64,000 bases of DNA from assembly GCA_009760855.2 (NCBI GenBank), contig WPIO01000125.1, positions 916,001 to 980,000 of the forward strand, read 5' to 3'. A program made the translations under genes and the position numbers. Numbering within the stretch: position 1 is the first letter of the stretch; each line of letters opens with the position of its first letter. Positions 4,216 through 25,556 of the stretch are shown piece after piece. The notes under the pieces were generated by a model. That model was not told where the DNA came from. It worked only from the letters and a program-made list of their open reading frames with translations, and did not search any database. The stretch comes from Cristatella mucedo (taxonomy: Eukaryota; Bryozoa; Phylactolaemata; Cristatellidae).

Positions 4216-4644
4216 CTAAGCCTCAGTATGCTGAAGGGCATCACTAATGCTGATATAGTCTGTGAGGGGTGTCACTTCGTCTAAGCAGGCCGAGCAGCGA
4301 AAACCGGTTGTAGGCAGTGCAGTGTACTCAAGTCCTTCGTTGACACGAATGTAGTCAGATGGCAACGAGGAGGATTGGACGTTCGATACAGCATCCATCG
4401 TCGTGCAGTCAAGAAAGCTTTGAAAAGTGTGGTCTTCGCCAGAAAGAGAAGCATGGTCTGTGCCGTTGCATTTGTCTGAGAACGGGCTCGAACTCGTACA
4501 GCCACCGAGCACCCGCGACCTGTCACCCGAGCCGACACTATCACATCCCTGGCTGTCTGAGGCAAGTACGAGCAGCAGCAGTGATGCCTCATTTGGCAGG
4601 TATGTCAAAGCGGACTCGTCATCAATCAGTGGTGTTCCATAGTT
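4216..4644 (-). CDS. Receptor exon 16 (last): cytoplasmic tail with ITIM/ITSM-like tyrosines
   Basis: The acceptor is a pyrimidine-rich stretch ending GACTAG at 4645, entered in phase 0, and the reading runs 142 codons to TAG at 4216-4218. The product is Ser/Asp-rich and hydrophilic with no further membrane helix. Tyr98 (SDYIRV) and Tyr107 (LEYTAL) fit the ITIM pattern [ILVS]xYxx[ILV]; Tyr130 (TDYISI) fits the ITSM pattern TxYxx[VI]. Tyr2 (NYGTPL) and Tyr15 (TYLPN) are further candidate phosphosites. No YxxQ STAT3-type site is present. Such motifs recruit SH2 phosphatases or adaptors in immune and cytokine receptors (family knowledge); here this is inferred from motif only. Confidence 0.75.
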   Translation of the reverse strand, partial: NYGTPLIDDESALTYLPNEASLLLLVLASDSQGCDSVGSGDRSRVLGGCTSSSPFSDKCNGTDHASLSGEDHTFQSFLDCTTMDAVSNVQSSSLPSDYIRVNEGLEYTALPTTGFRCSACLDEVTPLTDYISISDALQHTEA

Positions 4645-4750
4645 CTAGTCAGATTAAAATGAGAAAGGCTGTACATATTGCCGACCAAGTAATAAAGTCG
4701 CATAGCCTAGGGTGCACACAGCGATCATATACCTGAATTTCGTTACCCAC

Positions 4751-4886
4751 CTGGCTTAGTATGAATTCTGATGGGCTAGTTCCCAATTCAGCTTGGGTTT
4801 GACCACCGAAGGTTGTATATACTTGTCCAGCTACGTCAGCACTGCTTTCGCTTTCTTGATGCTGACAGTCAGTTTGAAGAGGGGTG
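4751..4886 (-). CDS. Receptor exon 15: cytoplasmic tail
   Basis: A short exon of one base plus 45 codons, bounded by a pyrimidine-rich acceptor ending CTATAG and the donor CCAG|GTGGGT. It enters in phase 2 and leaves in phase 0, exactly matching exon 14 and exon 16. The peptide is acidic and Gln/Ser-rich with one tyrosine in VYTTF. It is too short to be noticed as an open frame alone; phase and splice sites make the case. The 106-nt intron to exon 16 is short. Confidence 0.7.
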
Positions 4887-5689
4887 CTATAGAATCATGA
4901 GAAATTGAATTCATACGTCACGCTCGTGGCACTGTGGGAAGCACGCCAGGCTGACGCCCCAGCATTTTACAACTATGCTATGCATTGAAAAAATACTGGA
5001 GGCCAATTGCCAAGGTAGATCACTTGACTTCCCATTGTGGTGACTTACCTACCGACTTTTGCTACTTTTTTATGTTAGCTTAGCCGGCGGTGATCAGCAA
5101 CGTTATTCAATAGCTTAAGACTAACTAGGTCGACAGTTGCAACTGGTCTCCACTTTCAATCGAGCCAAGAATTCGGTTTGGATGGTGGTTAGCGATTTTT
5201 ATAAGTCACTGTCATAAGGCCTGCCTGCCTACCTTCAGAGGTTGGGTGCGCTTTGGTTGGACTCTCAAGGCTTCTGGCCCAGACAGCCATCGGCTTGTCC
5301 AGACATAAAAATGTTGAGGGGTGATCCCTGTCCCTGGCTGCTTTAGTACGGCACCATAGTCCAACCAGATGAACATTGGTAGTAATGATAAATATTAATA
5401 GTAAGGTAGTATTTTAGCACCATAGGAGAACTGGAGCTGTTGATGATACTTCACTTCGCCCGATCAAGAAGCAAGTAAATTTACTAATGATCGTAACCAG
5501 CGAAATTGCAAAGCACATACACACAAAAGATCATTCACAAAAACTGGGCATATGCTGTGAGGAAGAGGTGGATATATTGCATCACTTCACACTTCAAATG
5601 TCGATAAGTCAGGGGCTGTAGTGATAAAGTCAGCATATTACAGGCTTTAGGATTATGGGAATTGATTGATTGATTATGGGAATTAGGAT

Positions 5690-5785
5690 GACTGATCGCA
5701 TGGTCTCCAAAAGGTTTGAGGTTGTTTAGACACAGCTCCACAGGCAGACTTGAGTGTGGAGCTGACTTCGTCAACTAGCAAAATA
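5690..5785 (-). mobile_element. Degenerate LINE family A scrap
   Basis: On the reverse strand this short stretch matches pieces of the family A 3' coding end (TCTCCAAAAGGTTTGAGGTT and GGCAGACTTGAGTGTGGAGC read on the plus strand). It lies inside the 2.9-kb intron between exons 14 and 15. Confidence 0.45.
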
Positions 5786-6289
5786 GTCATATTGTAGCAA
5801 GCTTTAAAGTACCCAGATACATTTAGTTATCATAGGGCATTGGAAAAGTCCTATTGCTATTATTATTATTACTATTATATTAAAACATGGTTCCCAGGTC
5901 TCTGCAGAGGCTATTGGAAAAGTGCTAACTGAGCTCACAGGATGGCAAGCCTTTTCATTTCCTGAGTGACGCTAGATTTAACCATAACTCATAGGTTAGT
6001 ACTGTCATGATTTACTTTGTGACAGCTGCAGTCGATATTGGTATGCAAGCAGCAAGGAAAAAAGAGTTTGAGGCATTGAAGGCAGGGAAGCATCAGCATG
6101 CATTTAGAGCTGAGTGCCGTCTGTCTGTATTGACATGACATCTAAGATGAAATCAAGCACAGGCTGGGGATCCAGTAGAGAAGGTTGACATGTTTTATGC
6201 CGGCGCCACACGTACGGCAGTGCTGTGTTGGTGCAGCGATGAGCTTTTTAAGCCGTAACTATGATTTACTTGCTCAGTCTATGTTAATT

Positions 6290-7400
6290 TAAGTGCTCAA
6301 CGAGCCTATTGAGCCGCTTTCTATGCCTGGTAGGCCCTCCATAGAAGCCTGCAAGCTACTAGCAAATGGCTGCTATTGTACACCAAGTCCTTCCTGAGCT
6401 CTTATCCACGTGCCTTGGCGTCACTGGCACTGCATTGCAATGGTTTTAGGTCCCATCTCGGTGGAAATTGCAGAGCAGTAATGTTTATGGGCAATAGTTA
6501 TTCGAGGTGCCTTTATATTATGCAGCACATCACAGATCTGTGGTTGGTTAACTTGTCTAAACTTTGTATACTCTCCCTCCTGCCGATGTAATCCCCCAAA
6601 AAAGACGTAGCTTTAATTTTTATATAGATGACACAATTGTAATTGAGCTTTGATCCTTCCTGTTGTTCAGCATGTCGAACTCTTTAAAATCACACACACA
6701 CAACTTGTATAGCAGACATTTGCACTTAGAGAGCAGCAAACTTTTTCAAATTGAATGATGATTAAACCAACTTGCTAGTTGTGGGGAAACCTAACACTAT
6801 TCGAAAATTGGAACATCTAACCATCAAAACTGGCTCTGGCAGTTAATTTCCTCTAGCCTCTGCACGCAATCTGGGCGCCCTGTTATGAAATGACCTTTCA
6901 CTTGATAGCGCCATTAGCTCCTGATTCAAGTCTGCCTTATTTCAGCTAGGTAACATTCAAAATTTGGGCCTGCTTAGACAGTTATACTCGACAGTGACAT
7001 CGACCTCAGGGCTTTGTCACTCACGTTTTGATTCCATCATTTTTTTGCTCCTGTATATCTATCGGAATTGCTTTTCAATCAGGCTAGGTACCATGCAAAC
7101 TGCTCTTCTGCCTCAAGTCTTATAGCTGGGGCCTCTAAGCAACCTCAAGTCGTTTGGAGACCATGTTTTCAGTATTAATGGTCCTAAAGCCCGGAACTCA
7201 CTTTCAATTGACACAACGACATTCCCAGGCATGACGACTTTAAAAAAGGGAGCTAAAAAACCCACCTGCTCCTCTAGCATTTTCTCCATCGGTCCAAAGA
7301 ACTGTCTTTTTGTACTCATGCATGCTGACACTCTTCACGTTATCACTAACCAATTGATGTGTTTTCTCTCCAGCATATATAAAGTGCATAGAATATAATT
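6290..7400 (+). mobile_element. Old LINE family A copy
   Basis: Decayed matches run colinearly: the LGITGTALQW region near 6415, the YADD region (now a frame reading like YIDDTIV) near 6625, the ACLD region near 6980, the C-terminal end at 7130-7270, and a short tail near 7395. Many stops and frameshifts show great age. It is antisense within the receptor intron 14. Confidence 0.6.
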
Positions 7401-7427
7401 AGGTGACGATGCAACACAAATGTCCGA

Positions 7428-7555
7428 TTGCTGGTTTGGCCCAATCGTTAAGGTGCCTCACCCCGACTACGGTAGGGGTGGGCTCGAGCCCTGGGGCTTA
7501 TTTGAAGTGCCTGAATAGTGATAAAGTTCTCTTATATATAATTATCCTAACCATC
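7428..7555 (+). mobile_element. tRNA-derived SINE-A
   Basis: The head GCTGGTTTGGCCCAATCGTT and B-box-like GGGCTCGAGCCCTGG match SINE-A copies at 28.35, 47.55 and 62.26 kb. The tail is diverged (GAAGTGCCTGAATAGTGATA). It sits just beyond the end of the LINE copy. Confidence 0.65.
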
Positions 7556-7791
7556 CGGCTTTCAGCGAGCAGGAGGGCTGAAGGGGACATTCCGACCAGC
7601 TCTGGCAGCTTCGAAGTGGCTCTCCAGGGGTGAAGGAACTAATGCCTGCCAGCTCCCTGACCCTCTTTATAAACCTGTTAGGCAGGGAGGGTTCGGAAAT
7701 AAGAAATAGAGCATTCAATATATAGAGTGGACCCGGGGTAGCTGATAGAGTCAGGGTTGGAGACACAGCAGCAGCAGAGCTGCACTCTTAC

Positions 7792-7939
7792 CAGCCATAC
7801 ACGTGGTGCACCTCGTGGGATGCATTCGGCTGCATGCTGCTGCTGTCTTGACTAGCAAAGGCGCTGTCTTTTGACGACCATCTCCGAAGACTGTTTGACT
7901 GCAGTTCAGCAGGTATCAGCGCAAACTCCGGGCACAAGC
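7792..7939 (-). CDS. Receptor exon 14: cytoplasmic region
   Basis: The acceptor TTCTCTTGTAG is followed by two bases completing a codon, 48 codons, then two bases before the donor G|GTAAGAG. The frame would hit a stop (TAA) inside the donor itself, so without splicing it would end after a Trp codon. The strong donor, with phase 2 matching exon 15, argues it continues. The product is Ser-rich and hydrophilic with LRRW basic-aromatic and HVYG segments, consistent with a cytosolic tail. A splice variant ending at this read-through stop would lack the tyrosine motifs of exon 16. Confidence 0.7.
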
Positions 7940-8175
7940 CTACAAGAGAACACACCAACTTGTTTAGGGCGAGTGTGCACAGTAGCTGTGGGCTGACGTC
8001 ACAAGTAAGTTGAGCAGAAGAAGACCGCTCGTGGCAGCAGTCGGTAGCAGACGAATTGCACACAATTACAAACATGCCATGATGGCTAAAGATAGACTCA
8101 AGCTACTTGTAATAATGACCACGTGCTTTTGAAAAACATCGTGGCAATAGTCAGGTTGCAAAAGAAAGCGCTCAC

Positions 8176-8742
8176 GTTTCTGATTTGCCTCCGATGGCGA
8201 TAGGTATTGTCGAAGGAACGACACGGGAGCCAGATTGCTGTGGCGTGTGTGGTTGCTTGGTGCTGCAATCTTGATTTTCGGTATCGTCAGGTTGCCTCGC
8301 CACGTTTTGCGATAAGTGCGGACTTTGCGGACACATCCTATCAGGCCGACGACCATGAGCAGTCCCGAAATCGCTCCGCCCAAGGCCACGCCGCTTTTCG
8401 CCGCAGTCGTCAGCCCAGGGGTTCGCAGCCTCACCTCGACGGGCCCGACAAGCCGAGGTCGCGGCAGCCCGTCATCGACAGTCCACGTCAGCGACGCGTA
8501 GTAGGTTTCTGCTTCGGCCACGTTGCTCGTAAAGCAATGACTCGTGGCGCTGCCGTCGAGACGTCGCTGCTCTAGGAGAAGTGACCGATCGCTCGACCAC
8601 AGGCTGACGTTGAGCGACACGACGAGGCCCAGAGCTGCTGCGACCCCGCACGACTGCGACATCGGCAGCCATTTCATGCACACCTGCTGACTGTCGGCGT
8701 ACGTCGGAGTGACCTTGGGCAGCGCCTGGCCGGCTGCGACCG
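8176..8742 (-). CDS. Receptor exon 13: last FN3 domain, transmembrane helix, Box1-like segment
   Basis: Acceptor AAATTTCAG, phase 1 in and out, 188 whole codons, donor AAAC|GTGAGC. Residues 8-109 read as an FN3 domain (VCMKWLP near the B strand, YYASLTW in the middle, PVEVRLRTPG at the end). Residues 116-137 are a clean hydrophobic helix (SGVALGGAISGLLMVVGLIG), followed by basic RKVRTYRK. Next comes WRGNLTIPKIKI: a Trp seven residues before a Pro with hydrophobics, resembling the juxtamembrane Box1 that binds JAK kinases in class I receptors. That similarity is suggestive only. The exon is GC-rich and unusually long compared with the others. Confidence 0.78.
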
Positions 8743-9023
8743 CTGAAATTTCACGCCGAGTCGTCGCAGCACGAGCGTGCACGCGCACGAGCGGCAGCCG
8801 GCAAGAGAAGAGAGGCACGCACGCGACGGCACCGAGAAGACGGACGAAGCAGAGGAAGCGAGCTGGGGCACGGCGCACGCTTGCTTGCTTGCAGGCGGGC
8901 GGGCGGTAAGCCGGAGATGGCCGCCAGGCGGGCCGGCCGCTAGGCACTGACACTGTTGCAGTGCAGCACTGCCGGACCGACTGGTGAAGCTGGAGTGTAA
9001 GCCTCAGCTGCCAAGCTGCCTAC

Positions 9024-9279
9024 CGTCGTCATCTTGTCGCAGAAAGCGGCAGTCAACTTCAAGTAGTCTGCTCATGGTGGTGCCGCCTCGCACGCGCTCC
9101 TCTGGCGGTGGCGGCGGTGATGAGACGATGGCCACGGCCAGAGCGCCGTCGCGGCACAGGCCGCCGTCGTTGCCGGCGCTCTGCAGCTTGGTGCTGCTCC
9201 ACGCAAACCGCTCCAGCGGCAGCCAGCCGCCGGCCTTGGCCATCAGCCACGGCCGCCTCATCGTGACAACAGAGTGCTC
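9024..9279 (-). CDS. Receptor exon 12: second half of FN3 domain 5
   Basis: Acceptor GGATTTCAG, phase 0 start, 85 codons plus one base, donor ACG|GTAGGC (phase 1). The segment LCRDGALAVAIVSSPPPPP resembles the F-G strands of an FN3 domain (alternating hydrophobics then a proline-rich edge). FAWSSTKLQ and GGWLPLERF supply aromatic core positions. The GC content is high and all frames are open for long stretches, so the splice sites decide the frame. The donor is identical to those of exons 2 and 8. Confidence 0.65.
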
Positions 9280-9434
9280 CTGAAATCCCAGCCCGACCCG
9301 ACACGACGCAAGCTTGCGGTTTCGCGGCTGCGCGAGCAAAAGGTCCCAGCGATGGCCGCGGGAGGCGGCGGCGTGATGCAGATGCGTGCGTGCGCAAGCC
9401 ACAGCCTTGGCGGCCGCGGCAGTGCCCGACTCAC

Positions 9435-9586
9435 TTGGCACCTGTCGGCTTTGCTGGAGCAGTGGAGCAGCATTGCTTCGATTGGCTGCTGCTGATCGGC
9501 GATCGGCTCGAGGAACCAGCTGACGTTGCACGGCTTGCCGGCAGCCGGCTCCCGACTCAGCATGGCGCCTCGAGGAAGCAGGGCGC
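9435..9586 (-). CDS. Receptor exon 11: first half of FN3 domain 5
   Basis: Acceptor with a pyrimidine run ending GTCGCAG, phase 1 start, 50 codons, donor CCAA|GTGAGT at phase 0. The core PCNVSWFLEPIADQQQPIEA fits FN3 strands B and C (Cys/Val/Trp, then Pro-Ile). Two further cysteines follow (LLHC, DRCQ). An upstream GC-rich frame at about 9700-9882 also looks FN3-like after the acceptor CATCTCAG, but I found no good donor joining it, so I left it out of the model. Confidence 0.6.
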
Positions 9587-9899
9587 CTGCGACGGCAACA
9601 GAGTCGCACGTCGGCGGATCTTCAGGGCGCGCCAGCGGCAGCGATGTGGGCAACAGTTGTGACACGCCCCCCCAGTCACAGCAGCGAGCCGCGAGCACAG
9701 TGAGGCCACGGCAAAGGCAAGCTCGGAGAGGGGCCCTCCCTCCGAGTCACTGCCCGGAGGCGGCGCCAGAACGCGCTCTCGAAGGTTCGAACGGATTTCT
9801 GGAAGTTGGCCACTAACTAATCTGGCCGAGAGCTTGAGCCGGCACTCTGGTGCCTCGAGCTGCCTGGCCTGCACTGTGCCTTCTGAGATGAGCTGCTAA

Positions 9900-11695
9900 A
9901 ATCGCGACCTGGCTAGAAGAGTCAACAGCCTCAAGCCAACAACTCCTAGACCGTGCTGCACGTAGCTCCTTGATCAGCAGCTTGATCGGCAAAAGTCACC
10001 GTCAGTTCCGACTATTCTAGAGCAGCTTGCATTCTTCTGCTACTCTACATTCTAGTAGAGGCAGCGGTTCCACCAGCCGAACGGCAAGAGCAAGATGTCG
10101 ATGAGGGAGAGAGCCACGTGCCGAGAATCGGCAGCAGCGAATGGCTGGCATGCTCAACTGGCCCAGGTTAAACTCGCAGTGAGCAGGCACCACTGGCCTG
10201 GTGGATGCTACTACAATGGCAGCTATTGCAAGGCTTTTAGCCAGAGCCCTGCCAGCTCTCATGTTCACTATTCCCTTTCGTCTGTTCAAATAATGTAGCG
10301 CAACCATTGAGGAGCTAGTGTTTGCCTGCAGTGTCAGAGCAGGTGGATCGGATTAAAGCAGTATTGATGATAGAGTGCAACAGGACAAGCAGGATATGCT
10401 CGAGGAGTTCCTTGGAAAATTGATGCACAAAAAGCTTTTAGAAATGTAAAATATGCCCATATTTTGTTTTTAACAGCAGTGGCTGCAGAAACCGAAGTTT
10501 AGGACCAAAACGATAGGTGCAATTATGTTATTCATGTTTGTTATCGTGTGCGCATAGGTAGAGAGCCCAAATCGAAAGAGGAATTGGGACATGCTGATAG
10601 AGACAATACAGGCTGCTTGGTCGGACGTCAGCTGGATGCCAGTAGAAGAGTTCTACATTGCCCACACTTTTGGGGCACCGCATGCATGGCCGGTCTCTTT
10701 TAGATGGCAGCCTGTAAAGAAATGTATAATTCTGTCACAAATGTCCTAGATTTGAATACAAACCAAGGTGAACGGATTATGAAAATTCAGTTAATAGGTA
10801 AAGAGTAATAAGAATATCCAACAAGCTTTGGCAAGCTTCTAGGAAATGTGCAGAATTTTCGGCTGATATGCATGTGCACATAGATTTGCTTATGCACCCA
10901 CATGCATGTGCATATGTATGTGGGTGCACACTCACACAAAACTCACACACTCACAAACAAACACACACGCACACGCATACACATGCTACACTAACACATT
11001 TGGCCAATTTTTAATATGTATTTCTATTCCGATCCCAAACGACATTTCTTTTACGCAAATATGTTTCAACAGGTATCCTGCAACAGTTATATGCAAGACT
11101 GACAAAGTATCAAAGTAATGGCACAAGGAAATTGTCTTCATAGGATCTTCAAAGTCAAGATCTATGTAACAAAACCCAGGAAATGATCTTGTTATATACC
11201 ACTTGAACTGTTTACTGCACTGCCTTGGTTGCTGGAAAATAAACCTGTCAGTTCCACTGGTCTAGCATCTTCTGCCACATATGAATGTGGTTGAAATTGG
11301 GTCAGTATATATCGGGAGTTACTTCTTGCTTGTGCGTACTCATCATAAATTATGCAAAGCTTTAAGACCATTCTTGATTAACTGGCTGATCTCATGCCAA
11401 CTTGGAAAGCAGGAGCATCACCTAATACTGAGAACTTGAACCACAAGCCGACATAAAAACACGGTAATCTAAATGATCTCTGCCTGCACATGCACGCTCT
11501 TTCTCCCGGTGCTTGGAGTGCTGTGTGCGAAAAAGCAGGATTATTCAAACGGCTGGTACAAATGGTGCCAGCTTCGGCGGCCGATGCCACTTGTACAGCA
11601 CCTGCAGCTTGCCCCCCCCCCCTGCGTGCTAAGCGATTGATTGGCTCATTAAAAATAAGGCAGAATGACTTCCAGGACATCGCTGGTGACTATAA
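9900..11695. other. Intron sequence, little recognised
   Basis: Part of the 2.3-kb intron between exons 10 and 11. It contains a near-palindrome and CA-rich run at 10896-10985. No coding exon or interspersed repeat was identified in the remainder. Confidence 0.3.
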
Positions 11696-11699
11696 AGGT

Positions 11700-11860
11700 C
11701 CCCTTGAGTCTAAGCCTAGGAGTAAGGTGCATATACTTCACAGCCCAGATCGTGGGTTCCAGCCCTACAGCCGGCAGTTCTTTATTGATCAATACAAGCA
11801 AGAGCCGCCAGGGCTCTTCTGCTGCTAGATACTGTACGTGAGGTTTCTAAATCAGCTGAC
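11700..11860 (+). mobile_element. tRNA-like SINE-B (diverged)
   Basis: The B-box-like GATCGTGGGTTCCAGCCCTA, the TTCTTTATTGATCAATACAAG stretch in two pieces, and a tail AATCAGCTGA match other SINE-B copies at 19.1, 52.7 and 56.2 kb. It lies just inside the intron after exon 10. Confidence 0.5.
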
Positions 11861-11891
11861 CCTTCAAGTGTGCAGCGCCGTGCTACGGTAC

Positions 11892-12213
11892 CTGACTGGG
11901 CATCGTCCGGTGGAATGATGCAGGCACTCCAATTAGCCAGTGGCGGCAAGCCCTTGCTAGTGCCGCCAGCCACGGCTACCTGCAGCTCCTCGTTGCTGTG
12001 TCTGAACAGCTCGGCAGTTCGCGCAGCTGCCGAGAAGTTTAGCGTTTCCTTCTCAGTGCCCGGTCCCCTCATCAATTGCACTTGATAGAACCGGAGCTGG
12101 CCATTGGCCTGCCTCCTCGGCACATCCTTAAAAATGGCAGCTGGCATCAGGTTCAAGCCTGCTGAGCATGACAAGGGTTGGTAGTTGTCACATATGCCAA
12201 CAGGCACAAACGA
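11892..12213 (-). CDS. Receptor exon 10: second half of FN3 domain 4
   Basis: Acceptor TTTTTGTTTAG, phase 0 start, 107 codons plus one base, donor GTCAG|GTACCG (phase 1). This is the clearest FN3 half: NGQLRFYQVQL is the NGxxxxYxV C-strand pattern, ELQVAVAGGTSKGLPPLANW the F-G strands, followed by SACIIPP. The LANWSA segment is where class I cytokine receptors carry WSXWS; only a single WS is present, so it is degenerate or absent. Potential N-glycosylation sites occur (LNFSA, ANWSA). Confidence 0.78.
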
Positions 12214-13869: not shown

Positions 13870-14090
13870 CTTCCAGAAGATCCTGACGATCTGGCAAGAG
13901 CGCATCCCCGTTGTTGCTGCTGCTTGTCTACACGATCGACAGGCTGCCACCGACTGCTGGTCGCAGTCGAGCACCTGGTAGAAGCGATGGATCTCAGGCC
14001 CTGTTCGGGGTGCTGTCAATAGGGATGAACACAGCTCGTAATCGACAGTGCTGGGGAGTAGCTCTCTCGGCCCGCTGCTTGCTTGCACAG
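13870..14090 (-). CDS. Receptor exon 9: first half of FN3 domain 4
   Basis: The acceptor CACCGGCAG has a weak pyrimidine tract, but an in-frame TGA lies just upstream, so the exon must start near here. It enters in phase 1, has 73 codons and ends at the strong donor AAG|GTGAGC in phase 0, matching exon 10. The peptide has several cysteines (DYELCSS, LDCDQQ, CRSC, SCQIVRIFW). The last segment runs directly into exon 10. The exact 5' boundary is the least certain in the model. Confidence 0.55.
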
Positions 14091-14245: not shown

Positions 14246-14462
14246 CGTCTTCTTCGGTGAGCACGTGAAACTCGTGCACGGGCTGCAGCTGTAGCAGCCT
14301 TCCCGGCAGTGGCGTGGCCACCGGCAGCAGTGAAGCCGGCTCGCCAGAGAGCAGGCGCTGCTGAAGCGCCACCGAGTAGTGCTCGGCCGGCACTAAGCCT
14401 CCTAGTACCACCGAACAGTTGCCACTACTCATGCACGGGTCACACAGAAGGGTGACGCTTGT
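14246..14462 (-). CDS. Receptor exon 8: second half of FN3 domain 3
   Basis: Acceptor CGTTTGCAG, phase 0 start, 72 codons plus one base, donor ACG|GTAGGC (phase 1). GGLVPAEHYSVALQQ is a textbook FN3 E-F turn (L-x-P-x-x-x-Y-x-V), and ASLLPVATPLPG is the G strand and linker. A CDPC pair and NCS glycosylation site precede it. It continues exon 7 without a gap. Confidence 0.78.
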
Positions 14463-15508: not shown

Positions 15509-15666
15509 CACAGATCCGGCATCCAGTGAAGCAGTGACATTGACTACCGCCATGTAGGTTCGGTGCTGCATGCATTGCCTGACGAGGAGGCCGGCGTGCA
15601 GTGTCAAGACAAAACCAGTGCCGTTGCTAAAGGGCAACCACGAAAGTGTATCCATCGGCAAAGTGA
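15509..15666 (-). CDS. Receptor exon 7: first half of FN3 domain 3
   Basis: Acceptor TTTCTTTGTTTGCAG and donor GTG|GTAAGG are both near consensus. Two bases complete a codon, followed by 52 codons, ending in phase 0. TLSWLPFSNGTGFVLTLHAG is an FN3 B-C hairpin (Trp plus NGTG turn), and TYMAVVNVTA supplies the next strands. NGT and NVT are potential glycosylation sites. Joined to exon 8 it makes one complete FN3 module of about 105 residues. Confidence 0.8.
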
Positions 15667-17559: not shown

Positions 17560-18480
17560 GTCAAATTTAAGTGATACATGTGAATGATATCTTACCAGTT
17601 ATGGAAAATCTAGCATCCCTCAGAAATTGGAAAGCCCAATCCTTAAAATGGGCTCAACCAGCATTACTCTCTAGCATCTGCTCGAAATCTGGTTGTGCCA
17701 TTTCAAATTCATCACTAGGTTGCAACATTAGTTCCATAGTAACTTCTGCCTACTTTCTGCTAAAAGCCATTGCAAAAAGTCGGGCTTGCTTCGATAGAGT
17801 GCATTCGATACTGCAGCCAAGCTGGTCAATGCGTTTGTGATACTCCGATTAAATATCTGGCTACTCGCTATTCGAACGTCTGTCTGTCTGTGCAATTAGA
17901 TGTCTACAGCTGGTACAAGACTCTTCAGCTAGGCTTTCCTGTCGTGATCTTTGCAACTCTCATATATTAACCACACTGTTCACTGAACTGCACTGGTTCC
18001 CCATTATGTAGGCACCGACTTCAATATTCTGTCACTCGCTTGTAGGTCCTTTCTATCTCGGGCATCAGCCTTCCTACAGCAAGAACTTCCCCCGTGAGGC
18101 ACGTGTTATTGTGACGCCCGCTCTTCTGACTCCAGCCGTCTAGCTGTCTCTAAACAACCGCAAGTCCTTCGAAGACCACGCCTTCAGCTCGTATGCTCCC
18201 AAAGCCTGCAACTCAATGCCGACTGAATACTCGATACCGAAACGACATACGATAGCTTGATACATTTTAGAAGAAGATAGAGACCCAACATTTCTAACCC
18301 AGCGTTTTCTCAGTCCATGTGAACTGTTGAACATGTGTGAACGTGTGAACTGTTCAATGTGAGCTAATGCTTGCTGGTGCTGTGCATAACAGGTCAAATC
18401 AATTGATGGGGTTCCTTCCCAGCATACTAGAAAGGTCTAGAAAGAGACTTGGTTTTCTTAGGGTGCTCTACAGATGTGTT
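17560..18480 (+). mobile_element. LINE family A fragment, diverged
   Basis: Colinear matches to the region after the YADD box (NLASLRNWKAQSLKWAQPAL, then KSRACFD) through the C-terminal end, with frameshifts. It ends near AGAGACTTGGTTTTCTTAGG, a degenerate version of the terminal stem-loop. Confidence 0.65.
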
Positions 18481-18634
18481 TTCGCACAATTATTCTCAGG
18501 CTGATGCCATTTACCTGCTACAGGATTCGGTATCAGTAGTTTCACTTTCGGTGTGCATATTCAAGTCGTGCCGACGTTTCGGATTATACAAGATTCCAAT
18601 AATATATTGATTCACAAACACAAATTATGCTTAC

Positions 18635-18837
18635 GTGAATCGAGAACTCGCAGAATTTGAAAAGCGGTGACAGTGCGTCCGGAGAGTCTCTCAAAGAGCA
18701 CGACTTTAAAACGGATGCTGTCGGATGAAATTATGGTCAAGGAATCTCGATTAAAAGAAAAAGTAAGTGGCTCAGGTGCATAGTTTTGTGGATCACTATC
18801 AGTTAATGTCCACAAAAGTTCCTCTTCAACTTCAAGG
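18635..18837 (-). CDS. Receptor exon 6: second half of FN3 domain 2
   Basis: Acceptor TTTCTGATTTTTCAG, donor CAC|GTAAGC, both strong. One base, 67 codons, one base: phase 2 in, phase 1 out, matching exons 5 and 7. The peptide LLWTLTDSDPQNYAPEPLTF, then SDSIRFKVVLFERLSGRTVT, reads as beta-strands of an FN3 domain ending near VLDS. It is AT-richer than the exons near 9 kb. Confidence 0.75.
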
Positions 18838-19139
18838 CTGAAAAATCAGAAAAGCAACGTCAAAAGCAGTAACGACAGCAGCAGCGGTAGCAGTAGCAGC
18901 AGCGGTCAAATACTAAGCACTCTGAACGTCAAAAAAATAGAAGTATGAACTACTTCGAGTTTGGGTGCTGCACTGGATATTAAAGATCCAGCAAAAATTT
19001 TAGTCTGTGCTCACGTATGGCAAAAGATGGCTGCTTCTTTTCCAAGTAGTTGCGAGCATCTTATAGCTTCCTCAGTCGTGTACTACCTGCAGGCACGTGT
19101 GCATGAGCACAATTGTTCCTAGCATGCAAACGCAGGTGA

Positions 19140-19290
19140 GAGAGGGTCTTGCTCTTCACGACCTAGGTCGTGGGTCGAGTCCTGCAGTGGGCAATCCTTT
19201 AATACCCACCCACTGCAAGTGGTACTATTCGCCGGTAAGGCTTCTCTGTGGCTATGTAAATGAGGCTGTTCAATCAACTAGCCATGATAT
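19140..19290 (+). mobile_element. tRNA-like SINE-B
   Basis: The promoter-like CTCTTCACGACCTAGGTCGT and GGGTCGAGTCCTGCAGTGG, and the tail AATGAGGCTGTTCAATCA, match copies at 52.7 and 56.2 kb. Confidence 0.65.
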
Positions 19291-19516
19291 ATATGGCTGT
19301 TCTGACCTAAACTGTGAGGTGTGGGCATCATTGGCTGCCGTGTTCTGCTGCCGTCGTTATACCTGCATGCCTTGGTGCTGCTTTGCCGACTCGTCAGCCG
19401 AACTTTGATTCTTCTTTAGTTCTATCTGCATTGGTCTCGAAGCCTAGATATTGACTCGATGCCGAAGTAGCATCGGATGCATTCGTAACAACGAACACGT
19501 GCATGCACTAACCTGG

Positions 19517-19569
19517 ACACACACACACACACACACATGTATGTATGCACACACGTGCACGAACACATG

Positions 19570-19601
<32 letters not shown>

Positions 19602-19604
19602 TGC
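19517..19604. repeat. (CA)n microsatellite, interrupted
   Basis: Two CA runs (about 19517-19537 and 19568-19598) separated by mixed sequence. Cys/Val-rich frames here are artefacts of the repeat. Confidence 0.95.
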
Positions 19605-19733
19605 ACACGAGAGTCCTCTTGCACATACAAGTAGCCGAAACACATGCTCATGTGCATGCAGGCATTCGCAAAAGTCGCCAGCAGCTCTTTCGGCTAGCAG
19701 ATCAAGCAGTCAGAAAGAGCCGTCGTCGCTCAC

Positions 19734-19893
19734 CTAGTTCCAGCCGTGGCGTACACGCTGTAGTTGACAGCTGTGTTGAAGCGCGTGTGCGCCGATCGGG
19801 TCAAGTTGCATTCGACAGTGGCTTGGCCGCCAGTCGAGGACGTCCATTTAACGGTTGCAATGCAGCTGAGTGGCTCCTCGACCAGGCTAGGTC
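19734..19893 (-). CDS. Receptor exon 5: first half of FN3 domain 2
   Basis: Acceptor GTCTCTCGCTTCAG, donor ACTAG|GTGAGC. Two bases, 52 codons, two bases: phase 1 in, phase 2 out. CIATVKW is the B strand with its core Trp, ECNLT the C' strand with a glycosylation site, and AVNYSVYATAG the following strand. It is separated from exon 4 by an intron of just 40 nt. Reading straight through would change frame and stop, so the micro-intron is needed. Confidence 0.75.
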
Positions 19894-19933
19894 CTGAAGC
19901 GAGAGACCTGCAGCCGTCTAGCTCCGCTCTCAC

Positions 19934-20144
19934 CCTGAGCAGCTGCATCGCCGGTGCCGATGCGCGAGAGTCGCCAGCCCGGCCAGCCACCCCCCCCCCC
20001 CTGCAACCGCCTGCGCTGCACAGGGACTCCGGTGAAGTGAGCCTGATTTGCCAGCCGCACAGCCACGAGCTTGCCTGTCATGTCGAAGGTGGCCGAATTA
20101 TCCAGCTCCAAAAGGGGGATTATGTCACTATACAAGGATGGACA
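19934..20144 (-). CDS. Receptor exon 4: second half of FN3 domain 1
   Basis: Acceptor GACCGTACCAG directly after an in-frame TGA, phase 0, 70 codons plus one base, donor CAGG|GTGAGA. KLVAVRLANQAHFTGVPVQ resembles the last FN3 strands (V-x-V-x-A-N-x-x-G). After it comes a 12-base G run encoding Gly residues, then a low-complexity linker. The homopolymer is a likely site of length error, so residue number here may be off by frame; the donor phase nevertheless agrees with exon 5. Confidence 0.6.
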
Positions 20145-20159
20145 CTGGTACGGTCAAAT

Positions 20160-20527
20160 TGCGACTAGTCGATCAACACCAAAGAGTACAGGTCACCTAC
20201 TCTCCGAGGAAGGTAGTGAAGAGTTGGATTTTTAAAATGCTTCTCGGTCGGGCCGGTCTCGTGCTACCACTAGGCTAGAAAACACTATCCTAAAGCTGGA
20301 GGCGATAAAGGACCGTTCTGCTTCGGCACAAGCTCGCACTAAATGTCTGCAAGCCTCGTTTGGTACCGTCAGAAGGCGATTAGATGGAGGCCGGTCTGCA
20401 TTCTCGAATCGCTAAGGCCGTTGACATTGGGCCAAGGCTCGGATCAGCTGAACTGCTGAAGATGTGGGTAGATTTGTATGGTGTGACAGAAGCTAACTCA
20501 TGCTCTTTTCAGACTAAGAAAAGGTAG
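20160..20527 (+). pseudogene. Possible decayed ORF, part 1 (unrecognised)
   Basis: Plus-strand frames at about 20277-20415 (LENTILKLEAIKDRSASAQA) and about 20397-20527 (KAVDIGPRLGSAELLKMWVD) read like protein but lie in different frames with stops at their ends. With the next segment they look like one frameshifted ORF inside the receptor intron 3. No family was recognised. Confidence 0.25.
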
Positions 20528-20529
20528 CT

Positions 20530-20964
20530 TTGTGTGCATCGGCGACCCAACGAAGCCCGATGAACCAAATACTTTCAGCGAACTGTCAAATTTTGGAGAA
20601 GAGTGTAATGGTATCGAGGTGCTTCAGCAAAAATAGCGCCGGTGGCCTGCATTGCAAACCAGACACCATAATCCAAGGCCGTTATTTAGACCTTCAAAAC
20701 GTTGTACATTCAAGTGTGATGGCATTTCGTGTACTGGATTATTTTTTCATTACGACAAAGACACAAAACACACCACTGGCAAAGTTAAGTATTTTTTTAA
20801 CAATTTATTCGAGAGTGGCTCCCTCATTCGGCGGTTATGGACTGGCCAAGTCAGTCTCCAATCGAATCGCAAATTTGTGGGATGAAGCCAAGCAACAGCT
20901 ACTGCAACAGGCCGTCCTTATCACACCAGCTGATGCACTTTTTGAACATTTGCAACAAATCTAG
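20530..20964 (+). pseudogene. Possible decayed ORF, part 2 (144 codons, unrecognised)
   Basis: An open frame on the strand opposite the receptor, ending in a helical-looking segment (RIANLWDEAKQQLLQQAVLI). A second frame overlapping its start (20535-20634) also reads protein-like (CIGDPTKPDEPNTFSELSNF). Two adjacent good frames suggest a frameshifted remnant of a mobile-element protein rather than a living gene. No domain was recognised. Confidence 0.3.
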
Positions 20965-21826
20965 GGCAGTATATCGGCCGAAATTTGCACGTGTTTGATC
21001 AGCTTCATGTCTGGGCAGGTCCAGCAGGTCGTTGGAAATAGGGGAGGTGCAATGTCGTTGTCACTTAAAAATTAAGCACGAGACAAGATAATTGTTGGAG
21101 CATGTTTCTTTTTCTTATTGCATCCAGTGCTCATAGTCGTGGTAACAGTAACATTAAATATTTTTTCTAAATTCAGGCCAGCAGGCAGCCACAATGGAGG
21201 CTGTCTCAGCTGTCAAAATACTTTTGCAAGTGAGTGTATATAATGTAAAAACCTACTAGGAGTGTGGGCATGCATACTAGAGTCATGTAGATATGCGCAC
21301 GTCAATGTGCAATCATACTAGCAAGAATACTACATGACACTGCTTCTTTGATGATCCCTGACTGAGTGATCTATCCTAGAACTCAAAACAAGGCTGAAAG
21401 ATCACGTGATGAACTGAGATTCTCTTCCCATGACCGTTGTAGACAAGGAGGTGGTGGTAGCAGAAGAACAACAATGGCATGCATAGCAGTGCCGGCATGC
21501 TTTCACAGTAGAGGAATTTAAGTATATGCTTTGCTTGTATATGAGTTACATGTATATGAGTTGTAAAGAGCATATGTGTATCCATGGCTTTGTATTACAG
21601 CCTCTGCTCAATAATTAAACCGGTATCAACTTTGCACTATGCAGTAGCGATGCATCGAGTATCGTGTGCAAGTTGTGCTTCCAAGTGATTATTGAGTTCA
21701 GCAGTAGTAAGGAAATGTAAGCAACTAACTTACTTACTCGCATGCAGCACGTCGGAGAATTAGTTCATATCTGTAGACATCTAGTGAAAACAGGCCTTGC
21801 TATTTGTTTAAAAAGACGATTTTAGT

Positions 21827-21982
21827 GATAATAAATAAATAAATAAAATTCAGTTGTATAGTGCCAAGAGAACTTAAATTTATTCATGCGCTTCGCATGT
21901 GCCTCAGGGCTCGAGCCCACGACCTCAGCCAGAACTTGGTCGGGATGAGCACCTTAATCGCTGAACCAATCCAGCTCGGCAA
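21827..21982 (-). mobile_element. tRNA-derived SINE-A
   Basis: The reverse strand has the GAGCTGGATTGGTTCAGCG head, GGGCTCGAGCCC B-box region and a tail AACTTAAATTTATTCATGCG on the plus strand, followed outward by (ATAA)n. It is directly next to a SINE-B copy. Confidence 0.75.
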
Positions 21983-21985
21983 AAT

Positions 21986-22165
21986 AAATACTAGCTGATT
22001 CAACAGCCTCTTTTGTACAGCGACAGAAGAGCCTTTACGGCTTTCTCCACCGCTTGCAACAGCAATAAAGGATCGCCCACCTCAGGATTCGAACCCACGA
22101 CCTCGGGACCGAGGTCGTGATGAGCAACCACCTTACCTAGTGCGCCATCGCGTCTCACCATAATA
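21986..22165 (-). mobile_element. tRNA-derived SINE-B
   Basis: On the plus strand it reads TACTAGCTGATTCAACAGCC, then AGGATTCGAACCCACGACCT, ending CGCCATCGCGTCTCACCA. This is the best preserved SINE-B promoter region in the window. Confidence 0.75.
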
Positions 22166-22432
22166 TTAAAACGATACAATATCTGTGTAGTACACCAAGA
22201 GAAATAAATTTCCCTCAAGGCACTTTCAATTTGCTCCATGGCAGTCAATCCAAGCACACTTTTTAAAATTCATTCGGTGCTCCCCGAGCATTCATTAGGC
22301 ATAAAGCTACACCAACATAGAGTCTCGGTTTGATGCCATCCGAATGCACTGCTACCACTCAGCACTGCTAGTGAAGCTTATATCGGAGCTTCAGCTAGTG
22401 TTCCTTCGTATATTTCTGCTTACCAGCCTTAC

Positions 22433-22509
22433 CGCCTCAAAGCTCAAACCTACAATTCGTGTGTTCCCAGTCTGTGTGCAAGTCAATTTTATGTGCAAGT
22501 GAACTGTTG
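22433..22509 (-). CDS. Receptor exon 3: first half of FN3 domain 1
   Basis: A small exon: acceptor CATTATGCAG (or six bases further at GCAACAG; both keep phase 1), 25 codons, donor GCG|GTAAGG at phase 0. The peptide HLHIKLTCTQTGNTRIVGLS has the LTC strand typical of the start of an FN3 or cytokine-receptor domain and runs in frame into exon 4. The short length leaves some doubt. Confidence 0.55.
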
Positions 22510-23214
22510 CTGCATAATGCAGTCGGAGCATAATGAATAACTGTCGGGCTTTCGGTCGCAACTTGTGAAGACGATCGAAGGGGTGCACATATGACCGACA
22601 GCAAGCAACTCCCACGACTGAAAGGCCTCGAAAACTATAGCTTGCGACACAGCCGCCAAAAATAAACCATAGTTTGAGGCTGAGTCAAAAATAAATAATA
22701 GTCTGAGGCTTAGCCGGATTGCTTTGCAAATTAAAAGGGGAAGCAGATTATCTACATAAAACAGCCGTGAGAGTCTCCTTGGGTCAAGTAGGTCTCTGAT
22801 TCTGATAAAGTGCCTTTTAATGGTCCATTACCTGTGTACTTTATGGGTGACCACGACATTCAATTTCGCTTGAGTTTGGCACATACTTACCTGAAAAACC
22901 TCGATACTTGCTAGCAGACTTCGATCGCCGTCTGAACCGAGCTGCTTGATGAGCCCAACGAACAGCATGAAACCAGCATGCATTACGCATCACGTTTTTC
23001 TAATGCTTCTGTCTTATCGCCAGTACCATGAAAATGTTTTTGTGTGTACCGGCTAATACTTTTGTTTTCGCAAGGTGCCACACTTACAGGCCAATCCCCA
23101 TGCTGCTCGAAAATGCGTTGCTCATTTACGATTCGCGAGTGGAACAGCACAATTACCTAGTCAGCATGCCTGCGTTGGCTACTGTGGTTAAAGAGCAGAT
23201 GTCCCATAGCCTAC

Positions 23215-23547
23215 CGTTGTTGACGTAAATCACGTAGGCACTTTGATCTTGTGAAAGTACCGGCCAATCGGTCTGACCCCGAAGTCGGCAATAAAGGTAC
23301 ATTGTTTGGTCTGCCATGCTTCCGTTGAGAGGCCACGTTAACTTGATCTTAACGCGGTCGACGATGGACACGAAATGTGGAGTTGCTGCTGCCGAGTACT
23401 CCTCCTCTGAGGAGCCGAGAGTGAAGTACAGCATGCTGCTGTCAAAGCCTACCGGAGCTGCACAATAAGCCTCTATTACCGAGCCTGGCCGTTGGAATGC
23501 TGCGTAGTCAGTCACGTGTGTGCTGTTCCCAAACGACAAGCCTGCAG
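23215..23547 (-). CDS. Receptor exon 2: Ig-like domain
   Basis: Acceptor CTTCTGTCCAG (alternative six bases on), donor AACG|GTAGGC, 110 codons with phase 1 at both ends: a symmetric single-domain exon. Cys28 (VIEAYC) and Cys86 (YLYCRL) are 58 residues apart with Trp71 between, as in Ig folds. GSVIEAYC is the B strand, VDRVKIKLTWPL and MYLYCRL the E-F strands. NST and NGS are glycosylation sites. In gp130 a single Ig-like domain likewise precedes the FN3 array (family knowledge). Confidence 0.75.
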
Positions 23548-23791
23548 CTGGACAGAAGGCACGACTGGGTTAGCTCGGTGGCGTCTGCTGACATCCACTA
23601 CTGCTGACGGCAGAAATGCACAGGAAAACGTTCGAAGCACATGCATCCATAAAAATGCAACTATGAAAATGCCTACCATTCTCTACTTATGCAAATTTGT
23701 CTTGAGACAATTTTTTCTGTCCCAGTCTATTTTGTAAGTCGAGGGGGTGCTGCCTGTATATGTGCACACGTGCGCGAGCACGCGCCCGCGC

Positions 23792-23792
<1 letters not shown>

Positions 23793-23834
<42 letters not shown>
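23793..23834. repeat. (GT)n microsatellite
   Basis: About 20 GT units, with GC-rich GCGC sequence on its left side. Confidence 0.95.
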
Positions 23835-23835
<1 letters not shown>

Positions 23836-24019
23836 TATAAATAATAACAAAGTACATGAATTGTATGTGCTACGTTTCTAGTGCAGATAACTCGACAGGG
23901 AAGGGGGCTTGCTGAACCAACGAGATGGCTTACAGCAATCAAACCCATGAGTTCATTGTGAACTCTTGGTAACTTCTGTATTGGTCTAGGCCTAGCAGGT
24001 TGTCGTCGTTGCAATCAAT

Positions 24020-25180
24020 GACACATAAGTACTAATGATAGGGATGCAAAGCTCTTGGAGCAGCAAGCGATCGCTTTGGTGAGTAACCATTCTGGCCAGC
24101 AACAAGCTGCAGAGGCATATGCTAATCTCTCAAAAATGTATCAGACTTGGTGCAGCCACAATCTAGTTCATACTGTACCATCTATCTATCCATCTATCGT
24201 CTATCCTCTCGACAATAGAGGGTGAATGGTGCTGACCTAAACGCTCGCGCCACAGGTTTGGGCTCAGAAGTGACCTCCCGGTTTGACCAAGATATTTTAC
24301 CATGGTAGGTGCACCGCAACCCAGAAGGAGGGCGCCGATAGCGACCGCCAAGCTCCTGAGAGGTTTATATGACCTATGACCTATATCACCACAATCAGGC
24401 AAGCCCCGGCTTCGTGCTGCCTTTCCACGGGGTTCCGACGGATCGATGGATGCACGTTCAGAACATAGCTGCAGAAGCATCTTACCGAGTGTGTCGAGTG
24501 CACCTCATGTCTTTGTATAATAAGTAACTCCACTATTATGTATAAACCGACTCGTTAGATTTAAGACCTCAATGCTATGGCCATTCACACTTCATGCTCT
24601 CAAGCCTCATGGAGCTACTGACCCCAACACCACCGGTTACAACGAGCAGCAGCTCAGTTTTTCGGCATCAAGTTCGAAGATTCAATCTAGCAACAAAGTG
24701 AGGGAGTCACGAAACTAGCACAATTACAAAAAGCCGACTGGACTGTTCAGTGGCAGAACACTCTTCTAAAGAAATAATAGGTGACACACTTTGGGTCATA
24801 GATATAAGCTACCATCTCGATTCGGACCTTTCTCAGCTGGTTTTTTATAAGGCCTACTCGAGTTTCGAATCTAAATCTCCTTATAAGGACCTGCTGGGCT
24901 TTGACGCTTGCTATGAAACCGTAAACGTTGAGATAACCTTGAGCTACTACATAATACTGTACTTTAGGATTTGTATACCAATGTTAGATGCAGATGGAGT
25001 GCACCATCAATTAGCATTGCTCCCGCAGAGTCAATAGCACAAAAAACAGCCTGCTTTGGCATATGAGTATGCCTCGGATTTCGGATCAAACTTGGAAGCT
25101 TATGGAAGATACTTGTAGCTTTGAAATGAAACGAAGACTTTTGATTATTCGAGAGAAGGGGCTGCCGAAACAACGTCAGC
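24020..25180. other. Intron sequence, nothing certain
   Basis: Part of the intron between receptor exons 1 and 2. Short open frames on both strands (24750-25037 plus, 24964-25182 minus) have no splice or domain support. A (CTAT)n patch lies at about 24179-24205. Confidence 0.3.
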
Positions 25181-25472
25181 AACTAAAACTTGCTGTGAGC
25201 AGGCGATGCACTTGTTAGCAGTAGGCAACTGCATACCCCAGGTGTCTTTGGTGAGCCATGCATTGCCGTATTAATGAAAGAAATAACCTTTTGGCTTTTC
25301 TGACCTGCATGACCTTCTAGGAATTTCATCACATCGGCCTTTAGGATCCCTGGTGGTAAGAATGTACTGGTCCAAAGTAGGTCAAGAAAGTGATCATCAA
25401 AGCTGTTTTCACACAGAATGCACTGAAAATCAGCTTGGGTAAAGTAACAACTTGAGGTCATGGCACACTTAC

Positions 25473-25556
25473 CGGTTGTCTTCTCATAACTGGCACGCCA
25501 CTCTTGACCGTCGAGCCCTATTTGTTCGTTCACGAAAAGTTCTACTATTGCCCGCA
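25473..25556 (-). CDS. Receptor exon 1 of the assembled chain: N-terminal segment
   Basis: Acceptor ATTCTAG, donor ACCG|GTAAGT (full consensus), 27 codons with phase 1 at both ends, joining exon 2. The peptide (AIVELFVNEQIGLDGQEWRA) looks like extracellular strand sequence. The frame stays open past the donor for another 80 codons, but the perfect donor favours splicing. An upstream exon must exist because this one opens with a split codon. Confidence 0.55.

What the first reader, a model, noticed from the sequence alone, without database searches (positions are those of the whole stretch)
4216..25556. Undescribed Ig + six-FN3 single-pass receptor with cytokine-receptor-like gene architecture
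Sixteen exons, 15 of 15 junctions in phase, phase-1 introns at every domain border and phase-0/2 introns inside FN3 domains. This is the pattern known from vertebrate class I cytokine receptor genes. Domain order (Ig, FN3 array, TM, Trp/Pro juxtamembrane, Tyr tail) and size (1,223+ residues) recall gp130, LIFR and Domeless. Several exons are below 60 codons and invisible to ORF scans.
Basis: partly seen in the sequence, partly recalled or inferred. Interest (0 to 1): 0.88.

Follow-up and report, generated by a model that had tools for sequence, protein, structure and literature searches.

The report
Divergent gp130-like receptor gene, motif-less
A 14-exon gene of an unidentified animal is predicted to make a single-pass cell-surface receptor whose domain order and some intron positions resemble the vertebrate cytokine receptor gp130; it likely signals in a similar way although two hallmark cytokine-receptor motifs are missing.

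Summary
The gene is real, but the exon list needed correction. An intronless relative, P0001 (1,103 aa; the only hit in a 5.77-billion-protein database), agrees at 712 of 1,032 aligned residues and fixes the model: 14 minus-strand exons, 26,763 to 4,216, 13 GT-AG introns, 1,071 aa. Three in-phase draft exons are absent from P0001, so the layout is Ig-like + FIVE FN3-type domains + TM + tyrosine tail, as in gp130. For kinship: the third FN3 domain's best PDB hits are gp130 D4 (P0001's copy, E 0.0036) and LIFR (the window's copy, E 0.016); a profile match to gp130 beats 300 of 300 shuffles (hhalign probability only 33%); both introns in that aligned block share gp130's columns (one known from a single bat prediction); phases over FN3-1/FN3-2 are 1-2-1-0-1, published for interferon-receptor genes. 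Against membership: no WSXWS, no CX9-10CXW signature, no Pfam match; the other domains score at chance against their gp130 counterparts; contactin-3 ranks third in one list. Fold prediction failed (pLDDT 31 and 50). Organism unidentified. Verdict: likely works like a gp130-type cytokine receptor; not filed as a class I member; new variant of a known kind.

The parts
26703..26763 (-). exon 1: start codon and signal peptide (20 aa), ends phase 1
   Evidence: hydrophobic stretch at residues 6-24, strong donor GTAAGC, joins exon 2 in phase; P0001 covers only its last 6 residues, 3 identical, so this is the least supported exon
23215..23547 (-). exon 2: first extracellular domain, Ig-like by position and cysteine spacing
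   Evidence: 78 of 111 residues identical to P0001; profile hits in PDB are 4 of 4 antibody V domains, E 0.57-0.95; fold not settled
19734..19893 (-). exon 3: first half of FN3-1 (position 1 of the cytokine-binding pair), phase 1 to 2
   Evidence: 39 of 53 identical to P0001
18635..18837 (-). exon 4: second half of FN3-1, phase 2 to 1
   Evidence: 44 of 68 identical
15509..15666 (-). exon 5: first half of FN3-2, phase 1 to 0
   Evidence: 30 of 51 aligned identical
14246..14462 (-). exon 6: second half of FN3-2, ends LTEED in the column of gp130 TYED, phase 0 to 1
   Evidence: 45 of 70 aligned identical; its end lies in the hhalign block with gp130 D3
13870..14012 (-). exon 7: first half of FN3-3, ends ..IVRIFWK, phase 1 to 0
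   Evidence: 34 of 45 aligned identical; aligns to gp130 D4
11892..12126 (-). exon 8: second half of FN3-3 (DVPRRQANGQLRFYQV.. to WSAC), phase 0 to 1
   Evidence: 57 of 78 identical; gp130 D4 and LIFR matches
9435..9586 (-). exon 9: first half of FN3-4, phase 1 to 0
   Evidence: 33 of 50 aligned identical
9024..9279 (-). exon 10: second half of FN3-4, phase 0 to 1
   Evidence: 47 of 77 aligned identical
8176..8742 (-). exon 11: FN3-5, transmembrane helix (residues 759-777) and box-1-like juxtamembrane YRKTWRGNLTIPKIK
   Evidence: 143 of 185 aligned identical, the highest share of any exon; strongest hydropathy peak of both proteins, 2.21 and 2.49; a weaker peak of the window protein (1.70 at residue 671) lies inside FN3-5 and is not listed for P0001
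7792..7939 (-). exon 12: cytoplasmic tail, Ser-rich WSSKDSAFASQD
   Evidence: 31 of 46 aligned identical
4733..4886 (-). exon 13: cytoplasmic tail
   Evidence: 34 of 52 identical
4216..4644 (-). exon 14: rest of the tail to the TAG stop, with four of the six tail tyrosines shared with P0001
   Evidence: 94 of 140 aligned identical; shared tyrosines 931, 944, 1027, 1059

Best explanation
The minus-strand gene at 4,216-26,763 is predicted to encode a 1,071-residue single-pass receptor laid out like gp130, and it is likely a divergent gp130-type cytokine receptor that would signal through a bound JAK-type kinase. Shown: 13 of the 14 exons match an intronless relative in phase through extracellular region, TM and tail; FN3-3 has gp130 D4 and LIFR as its best solved matches; two introns and the phase series agree. 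Inferred: the fold of the other domains; ligand binding by the FN3-1/FN3-2 pair (D2-D3 position); ligand-driven dimerisation with FN3-3 to FN3-5 as the spacer (D4-D6 position); docking of a JAK FERM domain on the box-1-like stretch YRKTWRGNLTIPKIK; phosphorylation of the conserved tail tyrosines and recruitment of SH2 proteins such as STAT. No kinase or phosphatase domain is recognised in the tail, so an associated kinase would be needed.
For: P0001, the only relative found, 712 of 1,032 aligned residues identical, 1,103 residues on a 4,004-base contig. FN3-3 of P0001 alone vs 177,635 distinct PDB sequences: 12 hits with E <= 10, 9 gp130 (best E 0.0036), LIFR (0.086), contactin-3 (0.3), RPTP-delta (1.0). 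FN3-3 of the window: 11 hits, LIFR first (E 0.016, 80 of 124 residues), 9 gp130, contactin-3 third (0.19). Two-sequence profile: 11 of 13 hits gp130, LIFR or OSMR, E 0.073-1.3. hhalign vs 107 of the 120 returned gp130 sequences: score 42.7, E 4.4e-4; 0 of 300 shuffles reach it, best 29.0. FN3-3 vs D4 z 10.8; D4 is the third FN3 domain of gp130 as FN3-3 is here. Introns: LTEED|A at gp130 TYED|R and IFWK|D at gp130 VWK|T are the same alignment columns. Phases 1-2-1-0-1 over FN3-1/FN3-2, published for interferon-receptor genes (PMC8863823, passages).
Against: Sequence similarity to gp130 rests on about 33 residues of one domain, and hhalign itself gives the match a probability of only 33.5%. The other five extracellular domains and the TM stretch pair with their gp130 counterparts at chance level (z -0.6 to 1.6), while some misplaced pairs score: FN3-3/D6 z 7.3, FN3-3/D1 6.0 (7 columns), TM/D4 3.8, FN3-2/D1 3.3 (20 shuffles each). 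The three-alignment collinearity test of the shuffle run failed on the real pair. Contactin-3 stands above eight of nine gp130 entries in the window's own list. The class I four-cysteine signature and WSXWS are absent. gp130 introns inside D1, D5 and D6 and around the TM have no counterpart here. Pfam finds neither Ig/FN3 nor the gp130-specific families. Both fold models are unusable. JAK, STAT and ligand genes of this organism could not be looked for.
Confidence: 0.62

Rival explanations
1. It is an Ig/FN3 adhesion or guidance receptor (contactin, RPTP, DCC type) whose tail signals by recruited kinases, and the gp130 resemblance is only the general FN3 B-C strand pattern.
For: Contactin-3 is third in the window's FN3-3 list (E 0.19, ahead of eight of nine gp130 entries) and contactin-3 and RPTP-delta close the list of P0001; only one domain is recognisable; Ig-first, FN3-after order is common in adhesion receptors (recalled).
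Against: In three FN3-3 searches of the PDB the best hit is gp130 or LIFR each time; the phase series 1-2-1-0-1 and the two coincident introns. The absence of Pfam Ig/FN3 matches counts against both readings alike.
Confidence: 0.22
2. It is a cytokine receptor of class II (interferon-receptor) descent or an outgroup to both classes, with the gp130-like domain number reached separately.
For: No WSXWS and no CXW; the 1-2-1-0-1 phases are documented in the passages I read for class II genes.
Against: Six-unit extracellular layout, and gp130/LIFR rather than class II chains among the PDB hits of FN3-3.
Confidence: 0.12
3. It is a decaying or mispredicted gene.
For: Exon 1 is weakly supported; three in-phase draft exons proved false.
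Against: 13 of 13 introns GT-AG, no internal stop, and conservation with P0001 through extracellular region, TM and tail.
Confidence: 0.03

Closest known systems
gp130 (IL6ST) of vertebrates
   Same: Ig-like + five FN3-type units + TM + kinase-less tyrosine tail; FN3-3 matches D4; introns at the TYED|R and VWK|T columns; phase 1 at the D2/D3, D3/D4 and D5/D6 borders; a Trp-bearing basic stretch shortly after the TM
   Different: no WSXWS in FN3-2, no CX9-10CXW in FN3-1; no introns inside the Ig-like domain or FN3-5, the FN3-4 intron lies elsewhere, FN3-5/TM/juxtamembrane share one exon; the box-1-like stretch has one proline (IPKI) where gp130 has PDP
LIFR / OSMR
   Same: an FN3 domain of LIFR is the best hit of the window's own FN3-3, over 80 of 124 residues; OSMR appears in the profile list
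   Different: LIFR carries an additional N-terminal cytokine module (recalled); not seen here
Domeless and Ciona gp130-like
   Same: invertebrate receptors of gp130-like topology; Ciona gp130-like also keeps a gp130-like splice structure (PMC1963337 section 5)
   Different: the Domeless CHD is encoded by a single exon (same source), here four exons; no sequence of either was compared here
CRLF3
   Same: ancient class I receptor, reported from Cnidaria onward and not found in Porifera, Placozoa or Ctenophora (PMC6797617, passages)
   Different: 442 residues with WSXWS (same passages); this gene is far longer and lacks WSXWS

Membership tests
Class I cytokine receptors (gp130 group) | CX(9-10)CXWX(26-32)CX(10-15)C in the first FN3 fold of the CHD (PMC1963337, passages) | tested here: not met
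   FN3-1 reads LSC-X17-CNL in the window and LNC-X17-CDL in P0001; no Trp after the second Cys; no further Cys in FN3-1 of the window, one in P0001
Class I cytokine receptors (gp130 group) | WSXWS at the end of the second FN3 fold | tested here: not met
   the aligned stretch is LLQLQPVHEFHVLTEED; a lone W-S-x-C lies one domain later (NWSAC; GWSTC in P0001)
Class I cytokine receptors (gp130 group) | Ig-like + two CHD FN3 + three FN3 + TM order (gp130 layout) | tested here: inconclusive
   six extracellular units by exon structure and P0001; FN3 identity shown by sequence only for FN3-3; other domains by pattern and position
Class I cytokine receptors (gp130 group) | sequence kinship with gp130/LIFR | tested here: met
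   confined to the end of FN3-2 and FN3-3; hhalign probability 33.5%
Class I cytokine receptors (gp130 group) | two-exon FN3 folds of the CHD with conserved intron phases | tested here: met
   1-2-1-0-1; series documented in passages for class II, recalled for class I; gp130 border introns phase 1
Class I cytokine receptors (gp130 group) | Box 1 / Box 2 for JAK docking | tested here: inconclusive
   YRKTWRGNLTIPKI is identical in both species but has one Pro; alignment to gp130 box 1 within the null (score 22.7); box 2 not recognised by eye
Class I cytokine receptors (gp130 group) | JAK binding and STAT activation on ligand | not testable with these tools
   needs experiment
Ig/FN3 adhesion receptors (contactin, RPTP, DCC) | Ig/FN3 domains recognisable as such, with family-specific tail or anchor | tested here: inconclusive
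   no Pfam family up to E 10 for the draft protein or P0001, which also misses gp130 families; no phosphatase domain; contactin-3 follows LIFR and one gp130 entry in one list and ten gp130/LIFR entries in the other

The most novel reading that the evidence does not exclude
This is the missing upstream receptor of an early-branching animal (for example a sponge): a gp130-ground-plan receptor that predates the WSXWS and four-cysteine signatures by which cytokine receptors are recognised, so that the gp130 layout, its intron phases and tyrosine tail arose before the vertebrate motifs and before bilaterians.
Probability: 0.27. Interest if true: 0.86.

Novelty: new variant of a known kind. Interest (0 to 1): 0.6.

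Why it matters
One survey read in passages places JAK and STAT in sponges but IL6R only from molluscs on and gp130 only in vertebrates (PMC13203501); another lists JAK as emerging in chordates (PMC8662651, passages), and a third suggests that JAK and cytokine receptors joined in Bilateria (PMC6797617, passages). The age of the receptor is thus open. A receptor with gp130's layout and introns but no Pfam match, no WSXWS and no CXW would escape domain and motif searches. If the kinship holds, gene architecture and not the motifs is the older signature, and intron phase plus position gives a practical way to find further hidden cytokine receptors.

Tried and rejected
Draft 17-exon model: rejected after P0001, because three in-phase exons are absent there. 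Pfam scans of the joined draft protein, of P0001 and of six single domains of P0001: nothing credible (one chance hit, E 0.18). PDB search of the joined draft extracellular part plus TM and of the two-sequence full-length profile: 0 hits. PDB search of the other domain profiles: FN3-5 gave 3 hits, CpcN (E 6e-7 but no stretch significant alone) and two others (E 0.6, 1.1); FN3-1 avidin only, E 0.27; FN3-4 none; first domain 4 of 4 antibody V domains at E 0.57-0.95 (antibodies are very common in the PDB). FN3-2+FN3-3 together: 3 of 4 hits gp130, E 0.81-1.3.

Collinearity: with five alternative alignments the three best run in order (D3-D4, D6-TM, D1-D2 junction). The three-alignment version that I then wrote for the shuffle run was not collinear for the real pair (0 of 150 global and 6 of 150 local shuffles were), and the second and third scores lie within the null; I do not count them. 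gp130 isoform P0033 suggests a border at 358 rather than 352 in D4; the junction there does not look like a clean splice, so the VWK|T intron rests on one bat prediction, P0116.

Organism: no Rfam family at gathering score and no tRNA gene; the LINE reverse transcriptase and its 3' tail found nothing in genome contigs or viral contigs; of ten other ORFs one gave a reverse-transcriptase hit, below Pfam's cut-off. Nine paper searches (titles and abstracts listed) showed no report of this gene; 'Calcarea' with 'cytokine receptor' returned 0 papers. PMC3296744 and PMC6997183 were seen in passages and are not relied on.
Full report
What is there. The gene lies on the minus strand. By hand I first built a chain of 17 in-phase exons; 16 of them span the coordinates of the finding. 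A search with that draft in a database of 5.77 billion proteins returned one relative, P0001: 1,103 residues on a 4,004-base contig, hence without introns and transcript-like (only the 7,992 candidates sharing most words were scored). A second search with the TM-and-tail part (residues 760-1071) returned P0001 alone among 3,763 candidates.

P0001 corrects the draft. Three draft exons have no counterpart in it, two start further downstream, and the first extracellular exon is joined directly to 19,893. The corrected gene has 14 exons, 13 GT-AG introns of 88 to 3,321 bases, and encodes 1,071 residues, 712 of 1,032 aligned positions identical to P0001. Identity is 59-77% in exons 2-14, highest in exon 11 (FN3-5, TM, juxtamembrane). 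Exon 1, a signal peptide at 26,763-26,703, fits in phase but is only touched by the first six residues of P0001 (3 identical), so it is likely rather than shown.

Anatomy. Signal peptide; one domain in a single exon (Ig-like by cysteine placement; its profile finds only antibody V domains in the PDB, 4 of 4, but weakly); four FN3-type domains of two exons each; a fifth in one exon with the TM helix (residues 759-777, the strongest hydropathy peak) and the juxtamembrane stretch; a tail with a Ser-rich block. Nine tyrosines follow the TM, the juxtamembrane one included, and seven of them are shared with P0001. The six borders from signal peptide/Ig to FN3-4/FN3-5 are all phase 1; the inner introns of FN3-1 to FN3-4 are phase 2, 0, 0, 0. 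Pfam recognises no domain, catalytic or other, up to E 10.

Kinship. FN3-3 alone was compared with all 177,635 distinct PDB sequences. From P0001, 10 of 12 hits are gp130 or LIFR, best E 0.0036; the other two are contactin-3 (0.3) and RPTP-delta (1.0). From the window, 10 of 11 are LIFR or gp130, LIFR first at E 0.016; contactin-3 is third at 0.19, above eight of the nine gp130 entries. As a two-sequence profile, 11 of 13 are gp130, LIFR or OSMR, E 0.073-1.3. The gp130 entries are many copies of few proteins, so the independent hits are gp130, LIFR and OSMR. The matched gp130 part is D4, its third FN3 domain, as FN3-3 is here.

Profile against profile: the pair window + P0001 against 107 gp130 sequences gives score 42.7, E 4.4e-4, hhalign probability 33.5%, over 95 columns from the end of FN3-2 into FN3-3, on D3-D4. 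Of 300 column shuffles none reaches it; the best is 29.0, the means 19.8 and 20.1, sd 3.1; the reversed profile scores 22.2. Domain by domain only FN3-3 stands out: D4 z 10.8, D6 z 7.3, D1 z 6.0 (over 7 columns). The like-placed pairs of the other domains are at chance (Ig/D1 0.9, FN3-1/D2 1.6, FN3-2/D3 -0.5, FN3-4/D5 -0.1, FN3-5/D6 -0.6, TM 1.6), and two misplaced pairs score 3.3 and 3.8 (20 shuffles each). So the sequence case rests on one segment, and the three-alignment collinearity test of the shuffle run failed.

Introns as separate evidence. gp130 exon borders were read from deletions and insertions among 120 gp130 database sequences. A D3-skipping form (P0105) leaves a hybrid glycine, which fits phase 1 introns at D2/D3 and D3/D4, the latter at TYED|R. 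A bat prediction (P0116) carries an insertion exactly at VWK|T in D4. In the hhalign alignment these are the columns of the window's exon 6/7 border (LTEED|A, phase 1) and exon 7/8 border (IFWK|D, phase 0): both introns of the aligned block coincide. The D4/D5 border (IPACDFQ|A; 35 of 120 sequences lack the exon that starts there) lies, by eye, close to the window's IPPDDAQS|G. Published splice variants put introns after c.1552 and c.1699 of human IL6ST (PMC10746620, passages), which by my arithmetic are phase 1 at codons 518 and 567: the first is a domain border as here, the second, inside D6, is missing here. Introns inside D1, inside D5 (483) and around the TM also differ. Across FN3-1/FN3-2 the phases are 1-2-1-0-1; PMC8863823 (passages) gives 1-2-1-0-1-0 for most IFN-upsilon-R1 genes, conserved with other interferon receptors. 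[quoted passage not shown]

What is missing. The class I signature CX(9-10)CXW..C..C and WSXWS (as defined in PMC1963337, passages) are absent: FN3-1 reads C-X17-C-N/D-L, and the WSXWS position reads LLQLQPVHEFHVLTEED. A W-S-x-C lies at the end of FN3-3. Box 1 is arguable: YRKTWRGNLTIPKI is identical in both species, but has one proline. AlphaFold2 failed, likely for want of relatives.

How it likely works. In gp130, D2-D3 engage the cytokine, D4-D6 are needed for the conformational change and box 1/2 bind JAKs (PMC10746620, passages). By analogy FN3-1/FN3-2 would bind a ligand, FN3-3 to FN3-5 act as spacer, and the Trp/Pro stretch hold a JAK-type kinase that phosphorylates the conserved tyrosines. 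All of this is inferred from layout; none was tested.

Novelty. Only one relative was found in a database whose listings show nr, UniRef and EukProt entries, though the search needs shared 5-residue words and would miss distant ones. PMC13203501 (passages) reports JAK and STAT from Porifera on, IL6R from Mollusca, gp130 only in vertebrates; PMC8662651 (passages) lists JAK as emerging in chordates; PMC6797617 (passages) finds CRLF3 from Cnidaria on; PMC1963337 reports a Ciona gp130-like gene. The organism of this window could not be named, so its bearing on the age of cytokine receptors stays open; the lack of named relatives hints at a poorly sampled phylum. I rate it a new variant of a known kind.

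Noticed in passing
window 25473-25556, 22891-22931, 19991-20144 (-): Three open stretches with splice-like ends that join the real exons in perfect phase yet are absent from the intronless relative P0001: phase agreement alone does not prove an exon.
   Followed up: yes
window 42533-43375 (-), 59951-60544 (-): Reverse-transcriptase fragments of an L2/CR1-like LINE (RVT_1 E 1.2e-5 for the first, below Pfam's cut-off; the second and the clade name by eye).
   Followed up: partly
11 places from 183 to 61696, both strands: Copies of a LINE-like 3' tail CGCCTAGAAAGAGATTGAGTTCTCT, 11 within 3 mismatches, none expected by chance.
   Followed up: partly
window 2058-2207 (+): Looks like the last coding exon of another gene (..LTAKQLREQLKNRKQDVRSKNVPLNQKYALLEKL, stop TGA); Pfam gives only a sub-threshold dynein coiled-coil hit, E 0.021.
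   Followed up: partly
window 20518-20964 (+), inside intron 2: Reads like a degraded Tc1/mariner-type transposase (by eye, not tested).
   Followed up: no
window about 37100-37700: Very long CT/GA low-complexity tract, open in several frames; AT tracts near 16.9 and 25.9-26.3 kb.
   Followed up: no
C terminus, window 4219-4227, and end of P0001: Both proteins end in [T/S]-[E/D]-A, possibly a weak PDZ-binding end; P0001 has 57 extra residues in the tail.
   Followed up: no
donors at 23214, 14245, 9023: Three of 13 introns start GTAGGC after ACG, all at domain borders in phase 1, which might mean that domains were duplicated together with their splice site.
   Followed up: no
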